IMG/VR virus record: IMGVR_UViG_3300046780_000484
Span: 17,628 to 81,627 of that record
From: a virus
Direction: 5' to 3' (one strand)
DNA length: 64,000 bases
The translations under genes and the position numbers were made by a program. The notes beneath the pieces are model-generated. The model ran no database searches, had not been told where the DNA came from, and saw only the letters and a list, made by a program, of their open reading frames with translations. Of this stretch, positions 4,022 through 62,094 are shown piece by piece (positions within the stretch are counted from its first letter, which is position 1; each line of letters opens with the position of its first letter).

Positions 4022-4453
4022 TCACCCCTTTCTTCCGAGGTGCGCGCAGTCCCTCGGGTGGAAGATCGACTTCACGTAGACGCCGAAGGCGCTGATCTCC
4101 TGCTGCTGCGCCTTCGTCCTCGGCGGCGACCCGGGCGCCCGGGGAAGGGTAAGCAGGTGTGTCCAGAGCGTGACCTGCTGAGCCCTGGCGGCGTTCCCCG
4201 CCGTGCACAGGGCCAGTTCGGACTGCTTCGCCGCCGCCGCCGCCGTGTTCGCGTCGTGGGCCTGCACGGCGACGATCGCGATGGTCACGGTGAGCACCAG
4301 ATCCAGGATGATCGAGATGATCAGCCCCCAGATCATGCGCCTGTTCCGGTGCCCGTAGGCGGCGAGGCGCTGGAGTTCGGCTGTCATGTCCGTCAGGGCC
4401 CCGGTGAGGCCCTTCGCTGCCGCCAGCGCCTCGGAGTCCCCTGGCACGGTCAC
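4022..4453 (-). CDS. Single-TM phage membrane protein
   Basis: 143 residues from GTG at 4453, which overlaps the stop of the preceding gene (GTGA). An amphipathic helix (residues 5-35) precedes one TM segment (about 42-64, IWGLIISIILDLVLTVTIAIVAV). The following extracytoplasmic-looking part has two Cys residues (ALCTAGN and HPRDCAHL). Proteins of this shape occur near lysis genes of actinophages; no enzymatic motif is visible. Confidence 0.6.
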   Translation of the reverse strand: MTVPGDSEALAAAKGLTGALTDMTAELQRLAAYGHRNRRMIWGLIISIILDLVLTVTIAIVAVQAHDANTAAAAAKQSELALCTAGNAARAQQVTLWTHLLTLPRAPGSPPRTKAQQQEISAFGVYVKSIFHPRDCAHLGRKG

Positions 4454-4602
4454 GGTGCTACCAGCCTCTCGTCGTCCTCGCCGCCGGGAGGGTCCGGCCG
4501 CGTCAGGATCGCGCTGAGCGCGTCCACGTTGTCGCGGAGCTCGCCGAGGAGCGCGTCGAGCTGCGCGGCTACTCTCGCGATCTCCGTGTCCTTGGCGCTC
4601 AC
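4450..4602 (-). CDS. Small acidic hypothetical protein (50 aa)
   Basis: GTG at 4602 overlaps the stop of the upstream gene and its own stop overlaps the GTG of the next gene, so it sits in a GTGA-GTGA coupled chain. The 50-residue product is a helical, heptad-like segment (IARVAAQLDALLGELRDNV) with an acidic tail. No known family; possibly a small coiled-coil partner. Confidence 0.6.
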   Translation of the reverse strand: MSAKDTEIARVAAQLDALLGELRDNVDALSAILTRPDPPGGEDDERLVAP

Positions 4603-4856
4603 GGGTCGTCCTCGTCCCCGGTGAGGCCCGCCAGCTTGCCGAGCAGGTAGGACACCTGCTCGGCGTGGCGGAGGGCGTCGCGGGCCAGGGCGCGGATCTC
4701 GTCGGCGGTCATCTCGGTGCCCTTCGCCGCGGCTGATGTCAGCAGGGACCCGATCTCGGTGGCGCCGGGGGTGAGCGCGGCGCGTTCCCGGATGCGGGCT
4801 ACCATCTCGCGCGTCTCCTCGGAGATCCCGTCATCCCCGCCCGGTTCCTCGCTCAT
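4599..4856 (-). CDS. Hypothetical helical protein (85 aa)
   Basis: 85 residues, acidic at both ends, with two predicted helices (ETREMVARIRERAAL and ADEIRALARDALRHAEQVSYLLGKLAGL, of which the second looks amphipathic). It overlaps the TM/coiled-coil gene upstream by 26 bases and the 50-aa gene downstream by GTGA. No family recognised. Confidence 0.6.
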   Translation of the reverse strand: MSEEPGGDDGISEETREMVARIRERAALTPGATEIGSLLTSAAAKGTEMTADEIRALARDALRHAEQVSYLLGKLAGLTGDEDDP

Positions 4857-5214
4857 GGCCCTCCCGCCGGGTGACCAGTTCCTGAAGCAGCGGCAGCAGG
4901 GCCCCGGTGGTGGCGGTGAACTGGACCAGCAGCGGGACCAGCTGCACTTGCGCGATCTTCAGGGCGTCGTCGCGCTGCTCCTCGGCGCGGGTTTTCTCGG
5001 TGATCAGGCGCTCGTTCTCGGCGACGAGATCCCTGCGTGCCTGCTCCTTGGCCTCGTCGACGGCGGAGCGGGGGACGATGAACCGGAACGCGAACGCCAG
5101 CGCGATGATCCCGATCGGCCCGTAGCCCAGGATGTAGCTGACGATGCTCCCGGCCGCCGTGTCAACGGGGGAGACGTTGGCGGAGAGGGTGGCGATCAGC
5201 GCCCACGATGGCAA
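4831..5214 (-). CDS. Membrane-anchored coiled-coil protein, holin candidate
   Basis: 127 residues from TTG at 5214, with GGGGGATGAG just upstream. An N-terminal region (about 20-50) contains a TM segment (ILGYGPIGIIALAFAFRFIV), followed by a long charged coiled coil (about 52-95, EAKEQARRDLVAENERL) and a hydrophobic segment near 95-112. This layout is frequent in proteins annotated as holins in Streptomyces phages. It is the first gene of the membrane-protein group upstream of the amidase. Confidence 0.6.
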   Translation of the reverse strand: MPSWALIATLSANVSPVDTAAGSIVSYILGYGPIGIIALAFAFRFIVPRSAVDEAKEQARRDLVAENERLITEKTRAEEQRDDALKIAQVQLVPLLVQFTATTGALLPLLQELVTRREGHERGTGRG

Positions 5215-5265
5215 CTCATCCCCCTTCGCGCAGGTCAGGACACTCGGAAGGGGGAGCTGCGGGCG

Positions 5266-5454
5266 TCATAGCAGAGTCAGCTCCGATGGGCGAAAGCTAG
5301 CCGGGGGCCTCCCGTCCAGGTTCACAATCACTACCGCGTTAGAGCCCGTGCCCCGCACGAACCTGATCGAGCCGCGGCGGTGCGGTGCGGCGTTCTCCTG
5401 GACCCGGCGGCCGATCTTCCAGAGTTGCCGGAAGGTTGCCGCTGAGGTGGCCAC
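5266..5454 (-). CDS. Small basic hypothetical protein (62 aa)
   Basis: GTG at 5454 starts three bases after the stop of the large tail gene. The product is basic, with a beta-like second half (SNAVVIVNLDGRPPASF). Position directly after a tail gene suggests a minor tail or assembly role, but no family is recognised. Confidence 0.5.
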   Translation of the reverse strand: MATSAATFRQLWKIGRRVQENAAPHRRGSIRFVRGTGSNAVVIVNLDGRPPASFRPSELTLL

Positions 5455-5457
5455 GGC

Positions 5458-8400
5458 TCAGCTCCAGTACGAACTCGGCTCGAAATCTGCTTGCAGCACG
5501 ACCGACGCCTCGGCGGGTTCCCTGTCGTCGCCGAACCGGATAACCCGCTTGACGTTCGATATCCGGAAGGTTCCCGTGATCCCGCCGCCGCCGATCTGCC
5601 AGTTCTGGACGGTCACGACGTCTCCGACATTGATCCCTAGCACCAGTGGCCAGGCTGCCGGGTAGGCGGCGGCGTCGATCCGGAGGTTGTCGACGCGGAT
5701 CTGGACCTGCCCGAAGTTGGACAGGATCCAGTCGGCCTGCGACTGCTGCCCCGTCGCGGACTGGAGGTAGGAGTTGACCTGCCTGGGCTGCGCGCCGTAT
5801 TGCGCTTGTGACGCGTTCGCTGATGTCGCGTTCGAGGGGGTGATGTCGGCGAGGCTCGCCCCGTCAGGAGAAAAGGGGGTGATGAGGATGGCGTTCCATA
5901 CCCGCTGCGGGTCGGCGAGCCACCGGTAGCCTTCCCGGTAGTAGGGGTAGGCCGTCAGTGTCGCGCCCGGGGTGGGCGGGGACTGCGGGGTGATCGTCCA
6001 CACCGGGGAGGCGTACTGCGCCGCGAGGTGGGATTTCTGCCAGTACGTCAGGTTGCCGAGGTTGTCGATGAACATCAGCCCGCCATCGCTCTGGGCGATG
6101 TTCTCCAGGTTCTGCCCGGTCTGCTGCCCGCCGATGTCGGTGGCGGCCTGCACCGGCAGGGGGGCGGGGTCGATGCACCGGCCCGGGTAGGTGGCCTGGC
6201 CGTACCCCAGGATCCGCTCGAGCCGCTGGGCCACCGTGTCGCCGAGGGCGGACGCGGAAGCCGGGGGGGATGCCCCGGTCCCGCCGCTGACCTGGCACTT
6301 CCCGGCACCGGAAGCGCCCGCCCCGTAACCGGAGGAAAACGAGTCCCCCGCCCCGGCCACGACAGCGGCTAGCGTCTCGGTCCCGTGGCCGGTCGCGGTG
6401 TACACGTTGAACTGCGCCGCGGCCCCGTTCCACCCGACCCACGCCCAGGTGTTCAGGGTGTAGTTCACGGTGGTCGCCCACGCGGACGGCCCGGAGCTGA
6501 AACCTCCGACGACCGACGTGGCAACCGCCGAGTACGTGACCGTAGCGCTGCCGAAGCCGCCCGAGTACGTGCCGGTGTCGATGCTGCCGTCCGGCGCAAA
6601 GGTGGTGTTGCTGGCCGCCGACCCGGGGGACAGCGTGACAGCGACCGCCTGAGGGGCGGGCACGATCCCGAACGCGGTCATGGCGGCGCAGTAGCGGGCC
6701 AGGATCCGCCAGGCGGGCAGCCGGGACGGGTAGACGGCCAGGTGGGAGAAGGACGCGTTGCCGCCGTGGACGAGGCCGGTGCCGGCGCTGGAGCCGCCGC
6801 TGGCGCCCAGGTCGCCGTTGGCTATGAGCCAGGTCCACGCCGAGGTCATGCCCGCGGCGGTGCCGGATACGACGGCGGTGACGCCGCCGTTCACGTACAC
6901 CGTCCAGGCGGTCGCGGTCATGGTGACGGCGATGTGCCACCAGGAGTCCGACCGCATGTCGGAAGCCGTGTAGATAGAGTGGCTGGTGGGGGTCGCGCCG
7001 CTGTAGGTGATGAAGTTCAGGTGCCCGCTGAGGTCCAGCTGGAGGATGGCGACGGGGTTCGACCCGGTGGCCAGCTCCCACAGGGTCAGGGCAGTGTAAG
7101 GCTGCTGGCAGATGACGATATCGACCTGGCCGGCTCCGGTCGTGGCGGAGGCGCTGCCGCCGAAGAACTGGTAGTTGAACCATCCCTCGACCGTCACCCC
7201 CGCCGACAGCGGCGGGAAGCCCGTGTCGTTGCAGATCAGGACGAAGCCGTAGGACCCTGTGTTACCCAGCTGGCCGCTGGCCTGCCAGGACGCCGAACCA
7301 GGGTTGGACGTGACCGGGTTAGATGTCTGGTATGACGCGGGGCCGCTCTGCGGGTCGCCGTACATCCACCCGGCGTTCGCCGCGAACGCCTCCCCGGCGA
7401 TGGACGGGAGGAGGGTGGGGGCGGTGACGGCGTTGCCGTTGACGCCGTACTGGTTCTGCGCGGTCGCCCCGTTCGGGGACAGGACCACGTTGAGGACATT
7501 CGTGTTGCCCTGCGCCGAGTTCCGCAGCGACGCGGGCAGCACCCCCCCGGTAAGGGGCTGGTCGTCCATCGGCCACCACGCGTACGGGGAGTCCTGGTAC
7601 ACCTCTCCCCGGTACGGGGAGGGGCCGGAGGCGGACAGGACGGACCAGATGTCGGTCCCGGTCCCGGTGATGTACCGGCGGTAGGCGGGGTCGATCTGCT
7701 GCGGCCATTCCTGCATGTTCCGGCTGATGACGTACCAGCGGTTCACGGTAACGCCGCCGATGACGCCGAGCGCCGCGCGGATCCGGAGCGGGGTGCCGGT
7801 CACCAGGTCCGGGTAGTACGGGGATGAGGGGTTGTCGCTGGACAGGTGGGCGTCGAAGTTGTCGAGTTCCATTTCCAGGTTGGTGGCCTGGATGCTGCCG
7901 AGCTGGTACTGGATGCCGGTGGTCTCGTCCCAGGACCACAGCCGGGACGACAGGTCGGTCCAGGTGAGCTGATCCGGGGGGGTCTGGAACCCGCCGCCGA
8001 GCGCCGCCTCGAACTTCAGGTACGGCCAGGCCGGGTTGTTCGCCGCCGGGATCGGGGAGGATCCGGTGACGCGGACCTGGAGGATCACCCCGGACAGGTC
8101 CGATGCGGCCGAGGCGGTCCCGGTCACCGAGATCGACCCCGACGTGGACGGCAGGAACGCGGATGTGAGCACCGCGTCGCAGGTGTTATCCGAGCCATTG
8201 GTCACGCTCACCGCGGACAGCGCCGTCCACGAGGCGGGCGCGAACGCCTGCGTCACGGCCGTGGTGTCGCCGCAGACGCACGCGATGGTGAACGCCTGCA
8301 CGCCCGGGGCTGACAGCGACAGGCCCAGGGAGGTGGCGGCGGCACTGTAGTTCGTGCCGACCCCGGTCACCGTGTCCCACGGGCCCAGCCCGGCGATTTC

Positions 8401-53664: not shown

Positions 53665-55410
53665 TCACAACCGCCGCCCCCGGAACGGGTCCATCCCGGA
53701 GTATGCAAACCGGCCATTCCCCCCGCCTGCGGACAGGGTGAGCGCTTTCGCCAAATATTGCTCAGGGTTCATCGAACAGTGCGGACACGACGGCTCACGG
53801 GGCGGGTACGTCTTCCCGCACTCCTCGTTCGTGCAGGTCTTCAGGTACGCCACCGACCACGGGACCTGCGCGGGCCTGCCCCCGGCGTGCTTGGCGGGCA
53901 TCGGGGTGACCTCCGCGCCGCAGTTGGCGCACCGCTGGTCCTTGTCCTCGTTGACCCGCGCCCCGCACTTGGTGCAGTCACGGAACCCGTAGACGATGCC
54001 CCAGTCGCCCTGATTGCCGCCGGCGAGGTGGATCATGGCCCAGACAAACGCGTCCGCACGGTCATCGTGCATGCGCGAGCGGTCGTCTTCGATAGTCATC
54101 GCCGACAACTGCTCTTCCAGCTTGCCGAAGCTGTCCCCGACCATGTGCACCCGGCCCTGCATGAACAGGCTGGAAGGCCCCTGCGCCCGCGCGACCTTGC
54201 CCTTCATGCCCGAGACCGGCCGGATCGGGATGTTCGGGTCGACCGTGGCCAGCAGCGACCGGATGAAGTCGCCTGCCACGTTCACTTCCGCCACCACGCA
54301 GTCCGCGGCGTTGCGGTAGAACGCCTCGGCGATGACGCGCATCTGCTGCTCCGGGTCGAACCGGCCCGAGCAGTCCTCGAGGCAGTAGTAGTCCCCGTCC
54401 GCACCCTCCGCCAGGACGGCGATACCGGACTCGTCGCTGCGGGCACTGGACGTGGTAGCCGGGTCATAGCCGACGACGACGCGCCGCCACTGCGGCAGGT
54501 GATCCATCCCGGGGAACACGCGGGTCTCGTTGAACTTCTCCAGCGGGAACAGGCACCCGTCGACCTCGGCCAGCAGCTCGCCTTCGAGTTCCTGCCTGAG
54601 CATGGACGTTCCGGCGTACTTGCGCTCGAGGGTCTTGCGCTGCCTCGCGGCATAGTGCGGGTTCTCGGCGGTACGCCCGCGGGTGACGTGGACGCCGGTC
54701 TCGGCTTCGTTGTCGCCGTCGGCCAGCAGGTCGCGCAGCAGGCGGACCCGCTTAGGCGTGGTGGTGATCAGCAGCCGGGGGTTGTCTCCCTTGCGGAGCG
54801 CCGGCTGCAACCCCTCGTGGTAGAACTGGAAATACCTGATCATCGCCAGTTCGTCGAACCAGGCGTACGCCAGGTTCTCGCCGCGGATCGAGTCGGGCTT
54901 CTCGGCGCTGAAGCCCCGGATCTTGCTTCCGTTCTCGAACGTGAGCTCAAGCCGGTTCTTGTTGTAGTCGGTGATACTGACGCCGTTCACGCGCGCCACG
55001 GCCTCGACGCCGGATTCCCCTTCGATGCAGATGGAGCGGACGGCTTTGTCGGTGGGGGCGCAGATGCCGACGTAGATGCCGGGCTTGGACAGGGCCATCT
55101 CTATGACCCAGTTTGCCCCGCAGAGCGTTTTTCCCCACCCGCGCCCGGTAAGCAGCATCCAGGTGGACCAGTCCGGGTTCCCGTCGCAGCCGCACCTGTT
55201 GCCTTGCAGGTCAGCGTCAGCGTGACGGGGGTGGTCCGGGGGAAGCTGGGACGGCCGGGGCCCGGAGTCTTCCTCCAGCGTCTCCGGCTTGTCCCACCAG
55301 CGGAGCTTCGGGAAATACAGAGCGTGATAATCGCTCAACCAGCGCTCTTGCACGGCCCTCGGCCAGGCCTCGAACCCGTCCGGGAAATCGAGGCCGCCGG
55401 GGGTGCTCAC
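53665..55410 (-). CDS. Large terminase subunit
   Basis: 581 residues. Walker A is LLTGRGWGKTLCGAN (about 87), Walker B AYAWFDELAMI (about 180), motif III near LLITTTPK. The RuvC-like nuclease has VVVGYDPATTSS, CVVAEVNVAGDF and MHDDRADAFVWAM acidic residues. It packages DNA into the prohead. Residues about 500-555 form two zinc ribbons (CTKCGARVNEDKDQRCANCG and CTNEECGKTYPP...CPHC), uncommon for terminases. The GTG start at 55410 overlaps the stop of a 31-aa gene. Confidence 0.95.
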   Translation of the reverse strand: MSTPGGLDFPDGFEAWPRAVQERWLSDYHALYFPKLRWWDKPETLEEDSGPRPSQLPPDHPRHADADLQGNRCGCDGNPDWSTWMLLTGRGWGKTLCGANWVIEMALSKPGIYVGICAPTDKAVRSICIEGESGVEAVARVNGVSITDYNKNRLELTFENGSKIRGFSAEKPDSIRGENLAYAWFDELAMIRYFQFYHEGLQPALRKGDNPRLLITTTPKRVRLLRDLLADGDNEAETGVHVTRGRTAENPHYAARQRKTLERKYAGTSMLRQELEGELLAEVDGCLFPLEKFNETRVFPGMDHLPQWRRVVVGYDPATTSSARSDESGIAVLAEGADGDYYCLEDCSGRFDPEQQMRVIAEAFYRNAADCVVAEVNVAGDFIRSLLATVDPNIPIRPVSGMKGKVARAQGPSSLFMQGRVHMVGDSFGKLEEQLSAMTIEDDRSRMHDDRADAFVWAMIHLAGGNQGDWGIVYGFRDCTKCGARVNEDKDQRCANCGAEVTPMPAKHAGGRPAQVPWSVAYLKTCTNEECGKTYPPREPSCPHCSMNPEQYLAKALTLSAGGGNGRFAYSGMDPFRGRRL

Positions 55411-59959: not shown

Positions 59960-60117
59960 CGTGACCAGGGCATGTGCGCAGGGTAACCAGGCTCACTTCA
60001 GCCGAAAATCTTGACTGGTGCGAGAGATGGCTTAGGCGCGCTCTGTGACTAGTAGGCACGGAGAGTAACCGGGTTCACTCTGGCCGAAATCTTTGCCAAA
60101 TACGAGAGGGGGCTTGG
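59960..60117. repeat. Two tandem imperfect copies of a ~75-bp noncoding repeat
   Basis: Copy 1 (about 59960-60034) and copy 2 (about 60043-60117) share the ordered blocks GTGAC, AG, GTAACC, TCACT, GCCGAAA, CTT, CGAGAG and GGCTT at the same spacing. The region lies between a minus-strand gene and the TTGACA promoter and has no protein-like frame. Iterons of an origin, a regulator-binding array or paired RNA elements are possible. Confidence 0.6.
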
Positions 60118-60356
60118 CGGTACCCCGAATCGTCCCTTTCGTCCCGCGAATCATCCTTGTACCCTGGTGTCCGTTTCCGGTGCGAGCCGGGCCCGCGGCT
60201 CTGTGCGTGCCCGTGCTGCGTCCCCTCCCCTCGCTGCGCTCTGTCCCTCCCGAGCTGTGTGCGTGCGTCTGGTGTCCGTACGGGGGGCATGTGTGCGCTG
60301 TCCTCCCCCGCGTGCGTGCGCATGGGTGCGCGTGCTGAGTTCGTGCGCCGTTCCCC
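60118..60356. other. Noncoding, GT/C-rich spacer before the right-end promoter
   Basis: About 240 bases with long runs of TGCGTGCGT-like sequence and no ribosome site next to a start codon. Together with the repeats it makes a 475-base gap without a gene (59882-60356). Reading frames crossing it are biased in composition and unlike proteins. Confidence 0.5.
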
Positions 60357-60391: not shown

Positions 60392-60619
60392 ATGGCACGG
60401 AGCAAGAGCACGACCACCCGGCACACCTGCGGCGGTCCCGCGTTCGGACGCAAGACCCCCGGATGCCCGCGCTGTGACGAGCTCATCGGTGGCGCAGCCC
60501 CGGTGAAGTGGGCGGGTAGCCAGCGACGGCAGGATGACGAGCGCCTCGCAGCTGAGATCCGCGCGCATGACTGCACCCGCAGCCGCTGCGCCATTGTGTG
60601 CACGTTCGGCGACTGGTGA
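60392..60619 (+). CDS. Conserved Cys-rich actinophage protein (75 aa)
   Basis: 75 residues. TCGGPAFGRKTPGCPRCDEL, VKWAG and HDCTRSRCAIVCTFGDW give Cys/His pairs suited to zinc; I recall very similar small proteins in many actinophages. First gene after the consensus promoter. No Shine-Dalgarno, in line with leaderless translation. Function unknown, presumably early host takeover. Confidence 0.75.
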   Translation: MARSKSTTTRHTCGGPAFGRKTPGCPRCDELIGGAAPVKWAGSQRRQDDERLAAEIRAHDCTRSRCAIVCTFGDW

Positions 60620-60632
60620 GAGAGGACACGTC

Positions 60633-60848
60633 ATGCAGGACATCAACGGACGCGAAGTCACGATCAAGGCGGCGAGCGGGTACCACGGCTACGGCAGTCG
60701 CCCGTTCAGCATCACGGCAGAGACGCGGCAGGGACGGCGCGGATTCCGCGCAACGTGGCTGCCCACGAACAACAGCGCGCGATTCGCCACGATGCGGCAG
60801 GCAACCGCGTTCATAAAGGCCCACGAGCGCATCGCCTACGGCGCCTGA
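60633..60848 (+). CDS. Small hypothetical protein (71 aa)
   Basis: ATG 60633 is preceded by GAGAGGACACGTC, the first of the repeated GAGAGGAC ribosome sites. INGREVTIKAASGYHGYGSR, PFSITAETRQGRRGFRATWL are strands; a helix ATMRQATAFIKAHERI ends it. No family. Confidence 0.65.
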   Translation: MQDINGREVTIKAASGYHGYGSRPFSITAETRQGRRGFRATWLPTNNSARFATMRQATAFIKAHERIAYGA

Positions 60849-60992: not shown

Positions 60993-61148
60993 ATGGACTA
61001 CCCCGCGAACTACGCGAACGGCCGCTGCCCCGAGTGCGGTCGGCCGATGACCTACATTGCCGACAGCAGCGGTCACCAGCCCGGCACGTGGCTTCACGAC
61101 AAGACGGCCGACAGGGACGCCTGCCAGTCCGGTGACGGCCGGTACTGA
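60993..61148 (+). CDS. Small zinc-binding protein (51 aa)
   Basis: ATG 60993 after GAGAGGACTGACAGAC. CPECGRPMTYIADSSGH with a later DACQSGDG suggest a zinc site. It ends eight bases before the first hammerhead ribozyme, which would cut the mRNA after this gene. Confidence 0.6.
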   Translation: MDYPANYANGRCPECGRPMTYIADSSGHQPGTWLHDKTADRDACQSGDGRY

Positions 61149-61156
61149 GCAGCCTA

Positions 61157-61214
61157 GGACGAAACGCGCGCTCATCACCGCGCGTCGGCCCGTGAAACGG
61201 GCCCTGATGAGTCC
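61157..61214 (+). ncRNA. Type II hammerhead ribozyme, copy 1
   Basis: All catalytic-core elements are present in circularly permuted order: stem II strand GGAC (61157), GAAA (61161), stem III CGCGCG/CGCGCG (61165-61170, 61179-61184), UC with cleavage after C61186, stem I GGCCCG/CGGGCC (61187-61192, 61198-61203), CUGAUGA (61204-61210), stem II strand GUCC (61211-61214). A15.1-U16.1, G10.1-C11.1 and G1.1-C2.1 pairs all fit. Stems I and III are closed, stem II open, hence type II. It lies between two small genes. Confidence 0.95.
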
Positions 61215-61234
61215 AGGCGAGAGGACTGAGGGAT

Positions 61235-61405
61235 ATGACGCGCAAGCAGCGTAACGAGCGGGAGCACGAGCGGCGGGAAGAGGAGCGCAAACGCGCCGGC
61301 GCGTGGGGCACGGCTGGCGAGCACGGCATGCGGTGCGCGCACTGCGGCCACGGTCCTCACGGTGACCGGTGCCCCAACTGCGAATGCGCCGACTTCGACT
61401 TCTAG
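61235..61405 (+). CDS. Small charged zinc-finger protein (56 aa)
   Basis: ATG 61235, preceded by GAGAGGACTGAGGGAT. The first 22 residues are extremely charged (RKQRNEREHERREEERKR); CAHCGHGPHGDRCPNCECAD follows, a CxxC-CxxC zinc ribbon. Flanked by hammerhead ribozymes on both sides; the G of its TAG stop is the first base of the second ribozyme. Confidence 0.7.
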   Translation: MTRKQRNEREHERREEERKRAGAWGTAGEHGMRCAHCGHGPHGDRCPNCECADFDF

Positions 61406-61462
61406 GACGAAACGCGCGGATGTCACCGCGCGTCGGCCCGTGAAACGGGCCCTGATGAGTCC
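61405..61462 (+). ncRNA. Type II hammerhead ribozyme, copy 2
   Basis: The same core as copy 1: GGAC 61405-61408, GAAA 61409-61412, stem III 61413-61418 with 61427-61432, UC with cleavage after C61434, stem I 61435-61440 with 61446-61451, CUGAUGA 61452-61458, GUCC 61459-61462. The stems and core equal copy 1; only the stem III loop differs (GATGTCAC instead of CTCATCAC), which argues for conserved function or recent duplication. Confidence 0.95.
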
Positions 61463-61482
61463 AGGCGAGAGGACGAGAGAAC

Positions 61483-62094
61483 ATGACGATTACGGCAGAG
61501 CGGCCGGCGCAGACGGCGAACGCAGCCAAGCGCGGGGATCTCGTGGTGTTCGAGGAGCATCACCGCGATTACGTGCTTCACGGCGAGAACCGCGAGTACA
61601 GCACGTTTACGGTAGGCGTCGTCACCAGCGTTACCCGTGACGGTCATGTCAAGATGTACCGCCGCGCCGGCAACTTCGACCAGGGCAAAGACTGGCGCGG
61701 CGAGCCTGACCGCGGCGAATCGGTTCCGTCGCGGATGGTCCGCTCGTACCTGATGAGCTCCAAGAGCATCGACGTGGCGGGGGCGCTCGCTACCGCCGCG
61801 TGCCACGTCTGGGTGACGGACACGGCGCACGAGGACAGCGCGAAGGCGTATGACTCGCTCGCGGAGGTCAAGGCCGCGCTGAAGCCTCACCTGCTCAGCG
61901 CGGCCAGCTGGCGGGAACTGCGCGACGCTGCGGCCGTCTGGGAGAAGTCGCGCCGTGAGGACTCGCCGATGCTCACCGCCGCGCTGGCGGTTGCGTACGA
62001 CGACCGTCCCAGGTACCTCGAGATGTCAGCCGCCTACCACGCGGCAGTCACCGCGGCCAATGAGGCTTACCGCACCGTGTACGCGAACGCCTAG
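61483..62094 (+). CDS. Hypothetical protein (203 aa)
   Basis: ATG 61483 after GAGAGGACGAGAGAAC. The first third is beta-like (RGDLVVFEEHHRDYVLHG, FTVGVVTSVTRDGHVKMYR), similar in style to the 62200 gene; the rest is helical (VAGALATAACHVWV, AEVKAALKPHLLSAASWRE). No family recognised. Directly downstream of ribozyme copy 2, so its mRNA would have a ribozyme-made 5' end. Confidence 0.7.
   Translation: MTITAERPAQTANAAKRGDLVVFEEHHRDYVLHGENREYSTFTVGVVTSVTRDGHVKMYRRAGNFDQGKDWRGEPDRGESVPSRMVRSYLMSSKSIDVAGALATAACHVWVTDTAHEDSAKAYDSLAEVKAALKPHLLSAASWRELRDAAAVWEKSRREDSPMLTAALAVAYDDRPRYLEMSAAYHAAVTAANEAYRTVYANA

What the first reader, a model, noticed from the sequence alone, without database searches (positions are those of the whole stretch)
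61157..61462. Two near-identical type II hammerhead ribozymes flank a small phage gene
Both copies show every catalytic element (CUGAUGA, GAAA, UC cleavage site, three stems with correct closing pairs) in the type II permutation. They sit exactly at gene junctions; the second begins on the last base of a stop codon. Self-cleavage at C61186 and C61434 would cut the polycistronic transcript from the 60357 promoter into single-gene pieces with defined ends, ahead of GAGAGGAC ribosome sites. The GUCC strand could also pair with that GGAC after cleavage, hinting at translation control. Type II hammerheads are known from bacterial and phage sequence surveys; a tandem pair around a 56-aa zinc-ribbon gene looks unusual.
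Basis: partly seen in the sequence, partly recalled or inferred. Interest (0 to 1): 0.93.

Follow-up and report, generated by a model that had tools for sequence, protein, structure and literature searches.

The report
Paired self-cutting RNAs between phage genes
Two nearly identical self-cutting RNA elements (type II hammerhead ribozymes) sit at the two ends of a small gene in an actinomycete-like phage and probably chop its multi-gene message into single-gene pieces; this is a published kind of arrangement, but a survey here shows that it is common and very regular in phages, and that the standard RNA-family database misses most examples.

Summary
Window 61157-61214 and 61405-61462 (+) are complete type II hammerheads: full core, GUC cleavage triplet, three stems, predicted cuts after C61186 and C61434. 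The pattern is absent from 100 shuffles. Rfam Hammerhead_II matches at 30.4 and 33.3 bits (E 4e-4 and 7e-5 in 701 nt), below its gathering score of 37.

Pattern scans of viral contigs brought in relatives: 296 type II hammerheads in 175 loci, with none in reversed-sequence controls. They show strong covariation. 225 of 241 lie after the stop codon of a same-strand gene. In 39% the stop abuts stem II or shares its first G (2.6% at control AGGAC sites). The next start codon lies a median 22 nt downstream. 58 of 159 locus-strands carry two or more.

Both window copies belong to the commonest subclass here (UNANR stem-I loop, A/A flanking stem II, no pseudoknot signal). Rfam at its gathering score finds about 3 of 49 in 13 loci.

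Best explanation: co-transcriptional self-cleavage into single-gene mRNAs whose ends are closed hairpins. Perreault 2011 already proposed processing by clustered prophage hammerheads, so this is a new member of a known kind. Activity was not measured.

The parts
61157..61214 (+). Type II hammerhead ribozyme, copy 1 (stem II GGAC/GUCC 61157-61160 with 61211-61214; stem III 61164-61185; stem I 61187-61203; core CUGAUGA 61204-61210)
61186..61187 (+). Predicted self-cleavage site of copy 1 (after C17 = C61186)
   Evidence: position of the GUC triplet before stem I; inferred from hammerhead chemistry, not measured
61405..61462 (+). Type II hammerhead ribozyme, copy 2
61434..61435 (+). Predicted self-cleavage site of copy 2 (after C17 = C61434)
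   Evidence: inferred, not measured
61154..61226 (+). Duplicated junction cassette, copy 1: (C)UAG + ribozyme + GAGAGGAC ribosome site
   Evidence: ungapped alignment with 61402-61474, differing in four bases at the tip of stem III
61402..61474 (+). Duplicated junction cassette, copy 2
60993..61148 (+). Upstream gene, 51 aa, with a CPECG motif; stop TGA 61146-61148 followed in frame by TAG 61155-61157
   Evidence: Pfam zinc-ribbon matches only below the cut-off
61235..61405 (+). 56-aa gene between the two ribozymes, with two CxxC motifs (zinc-ribbon-like); stop TAG shares G61405 with stem II of copy 2
   Evidence: no PHROG match, Pfam zinc ribbon below the cut-off
61483..62094 (+). Downstream gene, 203 aa, no recognised family
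60392..60619 (+). First small gene of the rightward operon, 75 aa; homologues in actinomycete plasmids (51-66% identity)
60633..60848 (+). Second small gene of the rightward operon, 71 aa

Best explanation
Both elements are genuine type II hammerhead ribozymes placed as punctuation between genes of a rightward operon of small phage genes. As the operon is transcribed, each RNA folds and cuts itself after C61186 and C61434, beyond the stop codon of the gene before it and ahead of the ribosome site of the gene after it. No reading frame is broken. The 56-aa gene is released as a 248-nt mRNA (61187-61434). Because the permutation is type II, each product ends in a closed hairpin: the upstream mRNA ends in stem III with a 2',3'-cyclic phosphate, and the downstream mRNA begins with a 5'-OH on the stem I hairpin. 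The 4-bp stem II lets the halves part. Likely effects are separate control of message level, slower decay and protection of both ends. Shown: sequence, fold, family match, placement and covariation in relatives. Inferred: cleavage in the cell, end protection, and the effect on expression.
For: Complete core and stems in both copies. Whole-model Rfam matches. 296 relatives by structure descriptor with 0 in reversed-sequence controls. Covariation in 67 thinned sequences: all 15 pairs at least 98% paired, 13 with changes on both sides, and G12 A13 A14 plus all of CUGANGA except N7 invariant (part of this is fixed by the search pattern). Upstream stop codon at or before stem II in 225/241, within -12..+2 in 78% against 6% in controls, exactly abutting or sharing a base in 93/241 against 2.6% at other AGGAC sites; next start a median 22 nt after stem II. 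Never on both strands of one locus, cut-to-cut spacing median 632 nt, about one small gene. UUCG or GNRA caps on stem III in 84/248, as expected if stem III must be a stable 3' end. Published precedent: three tandem arrangements cleaved in vitro, and the ribozymes of one (Agrobacterium ardA) also cleaved when expressed in E. coli (PMC3088659).
Against: No cleavage data for these copies. Both score below Rfam's gathering threshold and lack the loop I/3'-tail pseudoknot that is usual in published type II hammerheads; the UNANR loop with A/A flank is taken to replace it, on statistics only. The same gene family in Streptomyces and Pseudonocardia plasmids shows no ribozyme nearby, so the ribozymes are not needed for that gene. 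No homologue of the two genes immediately downstream of the ribozymes was found, so conservation at this exact locus could not be tested.
Confidence: 0.82

Rival explanations
1. The excised 248-nt unit between the two cuts is joined end to end into a circular mRNA (by reverse hammerhead ligation or a host RtcB-type ligase), or the outer halves are joined and the 56-aa gene is spliced out. The two nearly identical ribozymes make either exchange sterically possible, because the unit's own 5' part (stem I, CUGAUGA, GUCC) and 3' part (GGAC, GAAA, stem III) can rebuild the active site.
For: The copies are interchangeable except at the stem III tip. In other systems flanking hammerheads yield circles (retrozymes, viroid-like RNAs; own knowledge).
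Against: Perreault et al. looked for spliced or circular products of tandem hammerheads and found none (PMC3088659). In the computed fold of the 248-nt unit GUCC pairs with the nearby GGAC of the ribosome site instead of with the 3' GGAC. Ribozymes within one locus are usually not near-identical (mean identity 0.80 within, 0.68 between loci).
Confidence: 0.07
2. A translation switch: before cleavage GUCC is held in stem II; after cleavage it pairs with GGAC of the downstream GAGAGGAC ribosome site and lowers translation.
For: The computed folds of both 3' products contain that hairpin.
Against: Not conserved: 19/248 leaders carry a perfect complement, equal to shuffles; the GAGAGGAC site stands before genes without ribozymes at 60620, 60977, 62600 and 62952.
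Confidence: 0.06
3. Decayed or dormant ribozymes: a duplicated junction cassette that keeps the sequence but no longer matters to the phage.
For: Homologous operons in plasmids lack them; the two copies could be a recent duplication.
Against: Every catalytic position is intact in both copies; the four differences all lie at the stem III tip and leave the stem paired; placement matches the strict rule seen in relatives.
Confidence: 0.05

Closest known systems
Type II hammerhead ribozyme (Rfam RF02276; Perreault et al. 2011, PMC3088659)
   Same: Same core, same permutation (stem II open, stems I and III closed), GUC cleavage triplet, presence in phage and prophage DNA.
   Different: Published consensus has a Watson-Crick pseudoknot between loop I and the 3' tail; the window copies and 201/248 relatives here have a short stem I arm (17-18 nt) with no pseudoknot signal, and those of the 17-nt class, window included, a UNANR loop. 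Rfam at its gathering score reports about 3 of 49 such ribozymes in 13 loci and neither window copy.
Clustered hammerheads flanking prophage genes (Clostridium scindens, Azorhizobium caulinodans, Agrobacterium ardA region; PMC3088659, Figure 3)
   Same: Several hammerheads around single small genes on one transcript; processing into operon- or gene-length mRNAs was proposed there.
   Different: Different phage and genes.
Halovirus HF1/HF2 hammerhead variant upstream of a helicase gene (PMC3088659)
   Same: Phage ribozyme just ahead of a start codon (13 nt), with a mapped 5' mRNA end within three nt of the cut site.
   Different: Single copy at the head of a transcript, core variant.
HDV-like theta ribozymes of gut phages (PMC10879173)
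   Same: Small self-cleaving RNAs encoded by phages.
   Different: Another ribozyme fold, linked to tRNA-based recoding by its authors (title and abstract only read here); no tRNA gene in this window.

Membership tests
Type II hammerhead ribozyme (RF02276) | Invariant core CUGANGA and GAA with A15.1-U16.1 and H17 | tested here: met
   Both copies: CUGAUGA, GAAA, GUC
Type II hammerhead ribozyme (RF02276) | Three stems, with stem II open and stems I and III closed by loops | tested here: met
   Stem II 4 bp, stem III 7-8 bp, stem I 6-7 bp; computed minimum-energy fold agrees
Type II hammerhead ribozyme (RF02276) | Covariance model score at or above gathering (37 bits) | tested here: not met
   30.4 and 33.3 bits, whole model, E 4e-4 and 7e-5. 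The same threshold misses about 46 of 49 descriptor-verified relatives in 13 loci, so this is a limit of the model more than of the sequences
Type II hammerhead ribozyme (RF02276) | Loop I / 3'-tail pseudoknot (common, not obligatory) | tested here: not met
   At most 2 bp possible in the window copies; the 17-nt and 18-nt stem I classes show no pseudoknot signal above shuffles, longer-loop relatives do (77% against 55%)
Type II hammerhead ribozyme (RF02276) | Alternative stem I/II contact: conserved U and A in loop I and purines flanking stem II | tested here: met
   UGAAA fits UNANR (U in 136/138 of the 17-nt class); A61156/A61215 fit the A/A flank (156/248). Its role as a tertiary contact is inferred
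Type II hammerhead ribozyme (RF02276) | Structure conserved by compensatory change | tested here: met
   13 of 15 pairs with changes on both sides in 67 thinned relatives
Type II hammerhead ribozyme (RF02276) | Self-cleavage activity | not testable with these tools
   Needs a cleavage assay
Clustered gene-flanking phage hammerheads (Perreault 2011) | Two or more hammerheads on one strand flanking a gene in phage or prophage DNA | tested here: met
   Two copies 248 nt apart around a 56-aa gene; the record encodes a terminase large subunit
Clustered gene-flanking phage hammerheads (Perreault 2011) | Cleavage products of the expected size | not testable with these tools
   Needs in vitro transcription or RNA-seq end mapping

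The most novel reading that the evidence does not exclude
A widespread phage strategy of hammerhead punctuation, in which the stop codon is built into the ribozyme: the UAG, UAA or UGA supplies the conserved A (and in UAG the first G) of stem II, so a terminating ribosome covers stem II and the GAAA strand and delays folding. Cleavage would then be gated by translation termination of the upstream gene, and operons of some phages would be cut at gene after gene into single-gene mRNAs, much as tRNAs punctuate mitochondrial transcripts. The subclass that does this is largely missed by the current Rfam threshold.
Probability: 0.22. Interest if true: 0.75.

Novelty: new member of a known kind. Interest (0 to 1): 0.47.

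Why it matters
What bacterial and phage hammerheads do was still described as an open question in a 2017 review (PMC6155905). Two near-identical copies around one 56-aa gene, plus hundreds of relatives placed to the base at stop codons, make the mRNA-punctuation idea directly testable with a short construct. The survey also shows that the commonest phage subclass found here escapes Rfam's gathering threshold, so published counts of phage hammerheads that rest on that threshold are probably too low.

Tried and rejected
GUCC/GGAC translation switch: not above shuffles in relatives. Loop I/3'-tail pseudoknot for the window copies: absent. Further hammerheads in the window: a relaxed type II descriptor and a simple type I/III scan found only the two copies; a pattern search of the whole 81.6-kb record also gave only these two. 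Homologous loci: no relatives of the 203-aa or 56-aa proteins in viral contigs, none of the 203-aa protein in the phage collection, and no DNA match of the locus in the phage collection. Plasmids sharing gene 1 (L177-L180) carry no type II hammerhead in the stretches fetched. tblastx of the region against actinomycete genome loci gave only scattered high-GC noise. A narrow pattern found nothing in bacterial genomes; a wider one found 20 stretches, several without plausible stems. A hit of the ribozyme to Burkholderia phage KL1 covers only 24 nt at E = 7, chance.

Full report
Observation. The two elements are at the stated coordinates. Each reads GGAC-GAA-stem III-C^-stem I-CUGAUGA-GUCC. Stem III is 7 bp in copy 1 and 8 bp in copy 2; stem I is GGCCCG(UGAAA)CGGGCC; stem II is GGAC/GUCC with A61156 and A61215 (copy 1) as flanking A/A. 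Cleavage is predicted after C61186 and C61434. Both minimum-energy folds are the hammerhead. Two exact pattern matches in the window stand against a mean of 0.00 in shuffles. Rfam at the gathering score lists nothing in the window, but in a narrow search Hammerhead_II (RF02276) matches both copies over the whole model at 30.4 and 33.3 bits, the best two hits, against a threshold of 37.

Setting. The window is the right-hand part of an 81,627-base virus record, 68% G+C, with a terminase large subunit at 53665-55410 (-). Gene order by eye: a rightward run of small genes at 60392, 60633, (60850), 60993, 61235 and 61483, each short, many with the same GAGAGGAC ribosome site (60620, 60977, 61219, 61467, 62600, 62952). 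Gene 1 has homologues of 51-66% identity in plasmids of Streptomyces chartreusis, S. europaeiscabiei, S. pseudovenezuelae and Pseudonocardia, which points to an actinomycete host; no ribozyme lies near it there. The 51-aa and 56-aa proteins have CxxC motifs, but family matches are below cut-offs.

The cassette. Aligned without gaps, the two copies agree from CUAGG to GAGAGGAC except for four bases at the tip of stem III. In copy 2 the UAG stop of the 56-aa gene shares its G with stem II. In copy 1 the same UAG is in frame with the 51-aa gene but is preceded by a UGA three codons earlier. The junction unit therefore looks like a duplicated block of stop codon, ribozyme and ribosome site.

Relatives. 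A structure descriptor run on all fetched loci (1.63 Mb) found 296 type II hammerheads and none in reversed sequence. Positions written in the patterns (GAC/GTC, GAAAC, GTC, CUGAUGAG) are conserved partly by selection of the data; the stems' outer pairs, the loops, the flanks and the placement are not.

Structure of the class. In 67 thinned sequences with a 17-nt stem I arm all 15 pairs are at least 98% paired and 13 show changes on both sides. 201 of 248 have a 17- or 18-nt stem I arm. In the 17-nt class the loop is U-N-A-N-R (U in 136/138, A in 104/138), and A/A flanks stem II in 156/248. These two classes show no loop I/3'-tail pseudoknot above shuffles; the longer-loop minority does. The window copies (UGAAA, A/A) belong to the first kind. 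Published type II hammerheads mostly use the pseudoknot (PMC3088659), and a review says type II contacts are usually Watson-Crick (PMC6155905), so this subclass is a variant. In 13 loci with 49 descriptor hits Rfam at the gathering score reported three hammerheads.

Placement. In 241 cases with enough upstream sequence, the stop of a same-strand ORF lies at or before stem II in 225; within -12..+2 in 78% against 6% for random positions; exactly at -1 (UAA or UGA then GGAC) in 44 and at 0 (UAG sharing the G) in 49, against 2.6% together at other AGGAC sites in the same DNA. The next start codon lies a median 22 nt after stem II (10-90%: 8-33). No locus has ribozymes on both strands, 58 of 159 locus-strands have two or more (up to eight in one locus), and cut-to-cut spacing has a median of 632 nt. 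In L109 seven ribozymes follow one small gene after another.

Mechanism. Cuts that nearly always fall after a stop and before a ribosome site separate genes without breaking a frame. In the type II permutation both products end in a closed hairpin: stem III, capped by UUCG or GNRA in 84/248, as the 3' end, and stem I as the 5' end with a 5'-OH. From general knowledge of bacterial RNA decay, both ends should resist exonucleases and 5'-end-dependent decay; this step is inference. The idea that a terminating ribosome gates the ribozyme is a further inference from the stop-codon register.

Rivals. Circularisation or splicing of the 248-nt unit is possible in principle but was not seen for published tandem hammerheads. 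The GUCC/GGAC translation switch is not conserved. Decay of the ribozymes is unlikely, since every core base is intact in both copies.

Known or new. Perreault et al. (PMC3088659) reported type II hammerheads, clusters that flank prophage genes, the processing hypothesis, and cleavage of three tandem sets in vitro, one of them also on expression in E. coli. The window is a new member of that kind. What the survey adds is the precise stop-codon junction, the predominance of a pseudoknot-free subclass, and its low visibility to Rfam. I cannot exclude that later subscription-journal work covers part of this; the literature searches here reach open papers only.

Noticed in passing
L126, L128, L140: 6.65 kb are 100% identical between Phycicoccus jejuensis and Streptomyces iakyrus assemblies, and the Eggerthellaceae MAG shows an identical ribozyme and flanks; probably a contaminating phage. 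It carries three type II hammerheads, each sharing the G of a UAG stop.
   Followed up: partly
L134, L136, L141, L123: Actinomycete genomes (Kutzneria, Lentzea, Sciscionella) and a Melainabacteria MAG hold hammerhead-like matches; L136, L141 and L123 are alike (CUGGACGAAACGCC...) with a longer stem I loop, and L136 and L134 lie just ahead of likely start codons.
   Followed up: no
60620, 60977, 61219, 61467, 62600, 62952: The same GAGAGGAC ribosome-site block recurs ahead of most small genes of the rightward operon, with or without a ribozyme.
   Followed up: partly
60001-60040 and 60082-60120: An imperfect direct repeat (GCCGAAAtCTT...GCGAGAG/ACGAGAG...GGCTTGGCG) lies upstream of the operon start; possible operator or origin elements.
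   Followed up: no
L109 7300-11800 and L159: Seven hammerheads each, following one small gene after another: good candidates for a test of whole-operon punctuation.
   Followed up: partly
L177, L178 around 4400-6200: In the Streptomyces plasmids a GntR-family regulator gene lies divergently upstream of the homologue of the window's first operon gene.
   Followed up: no
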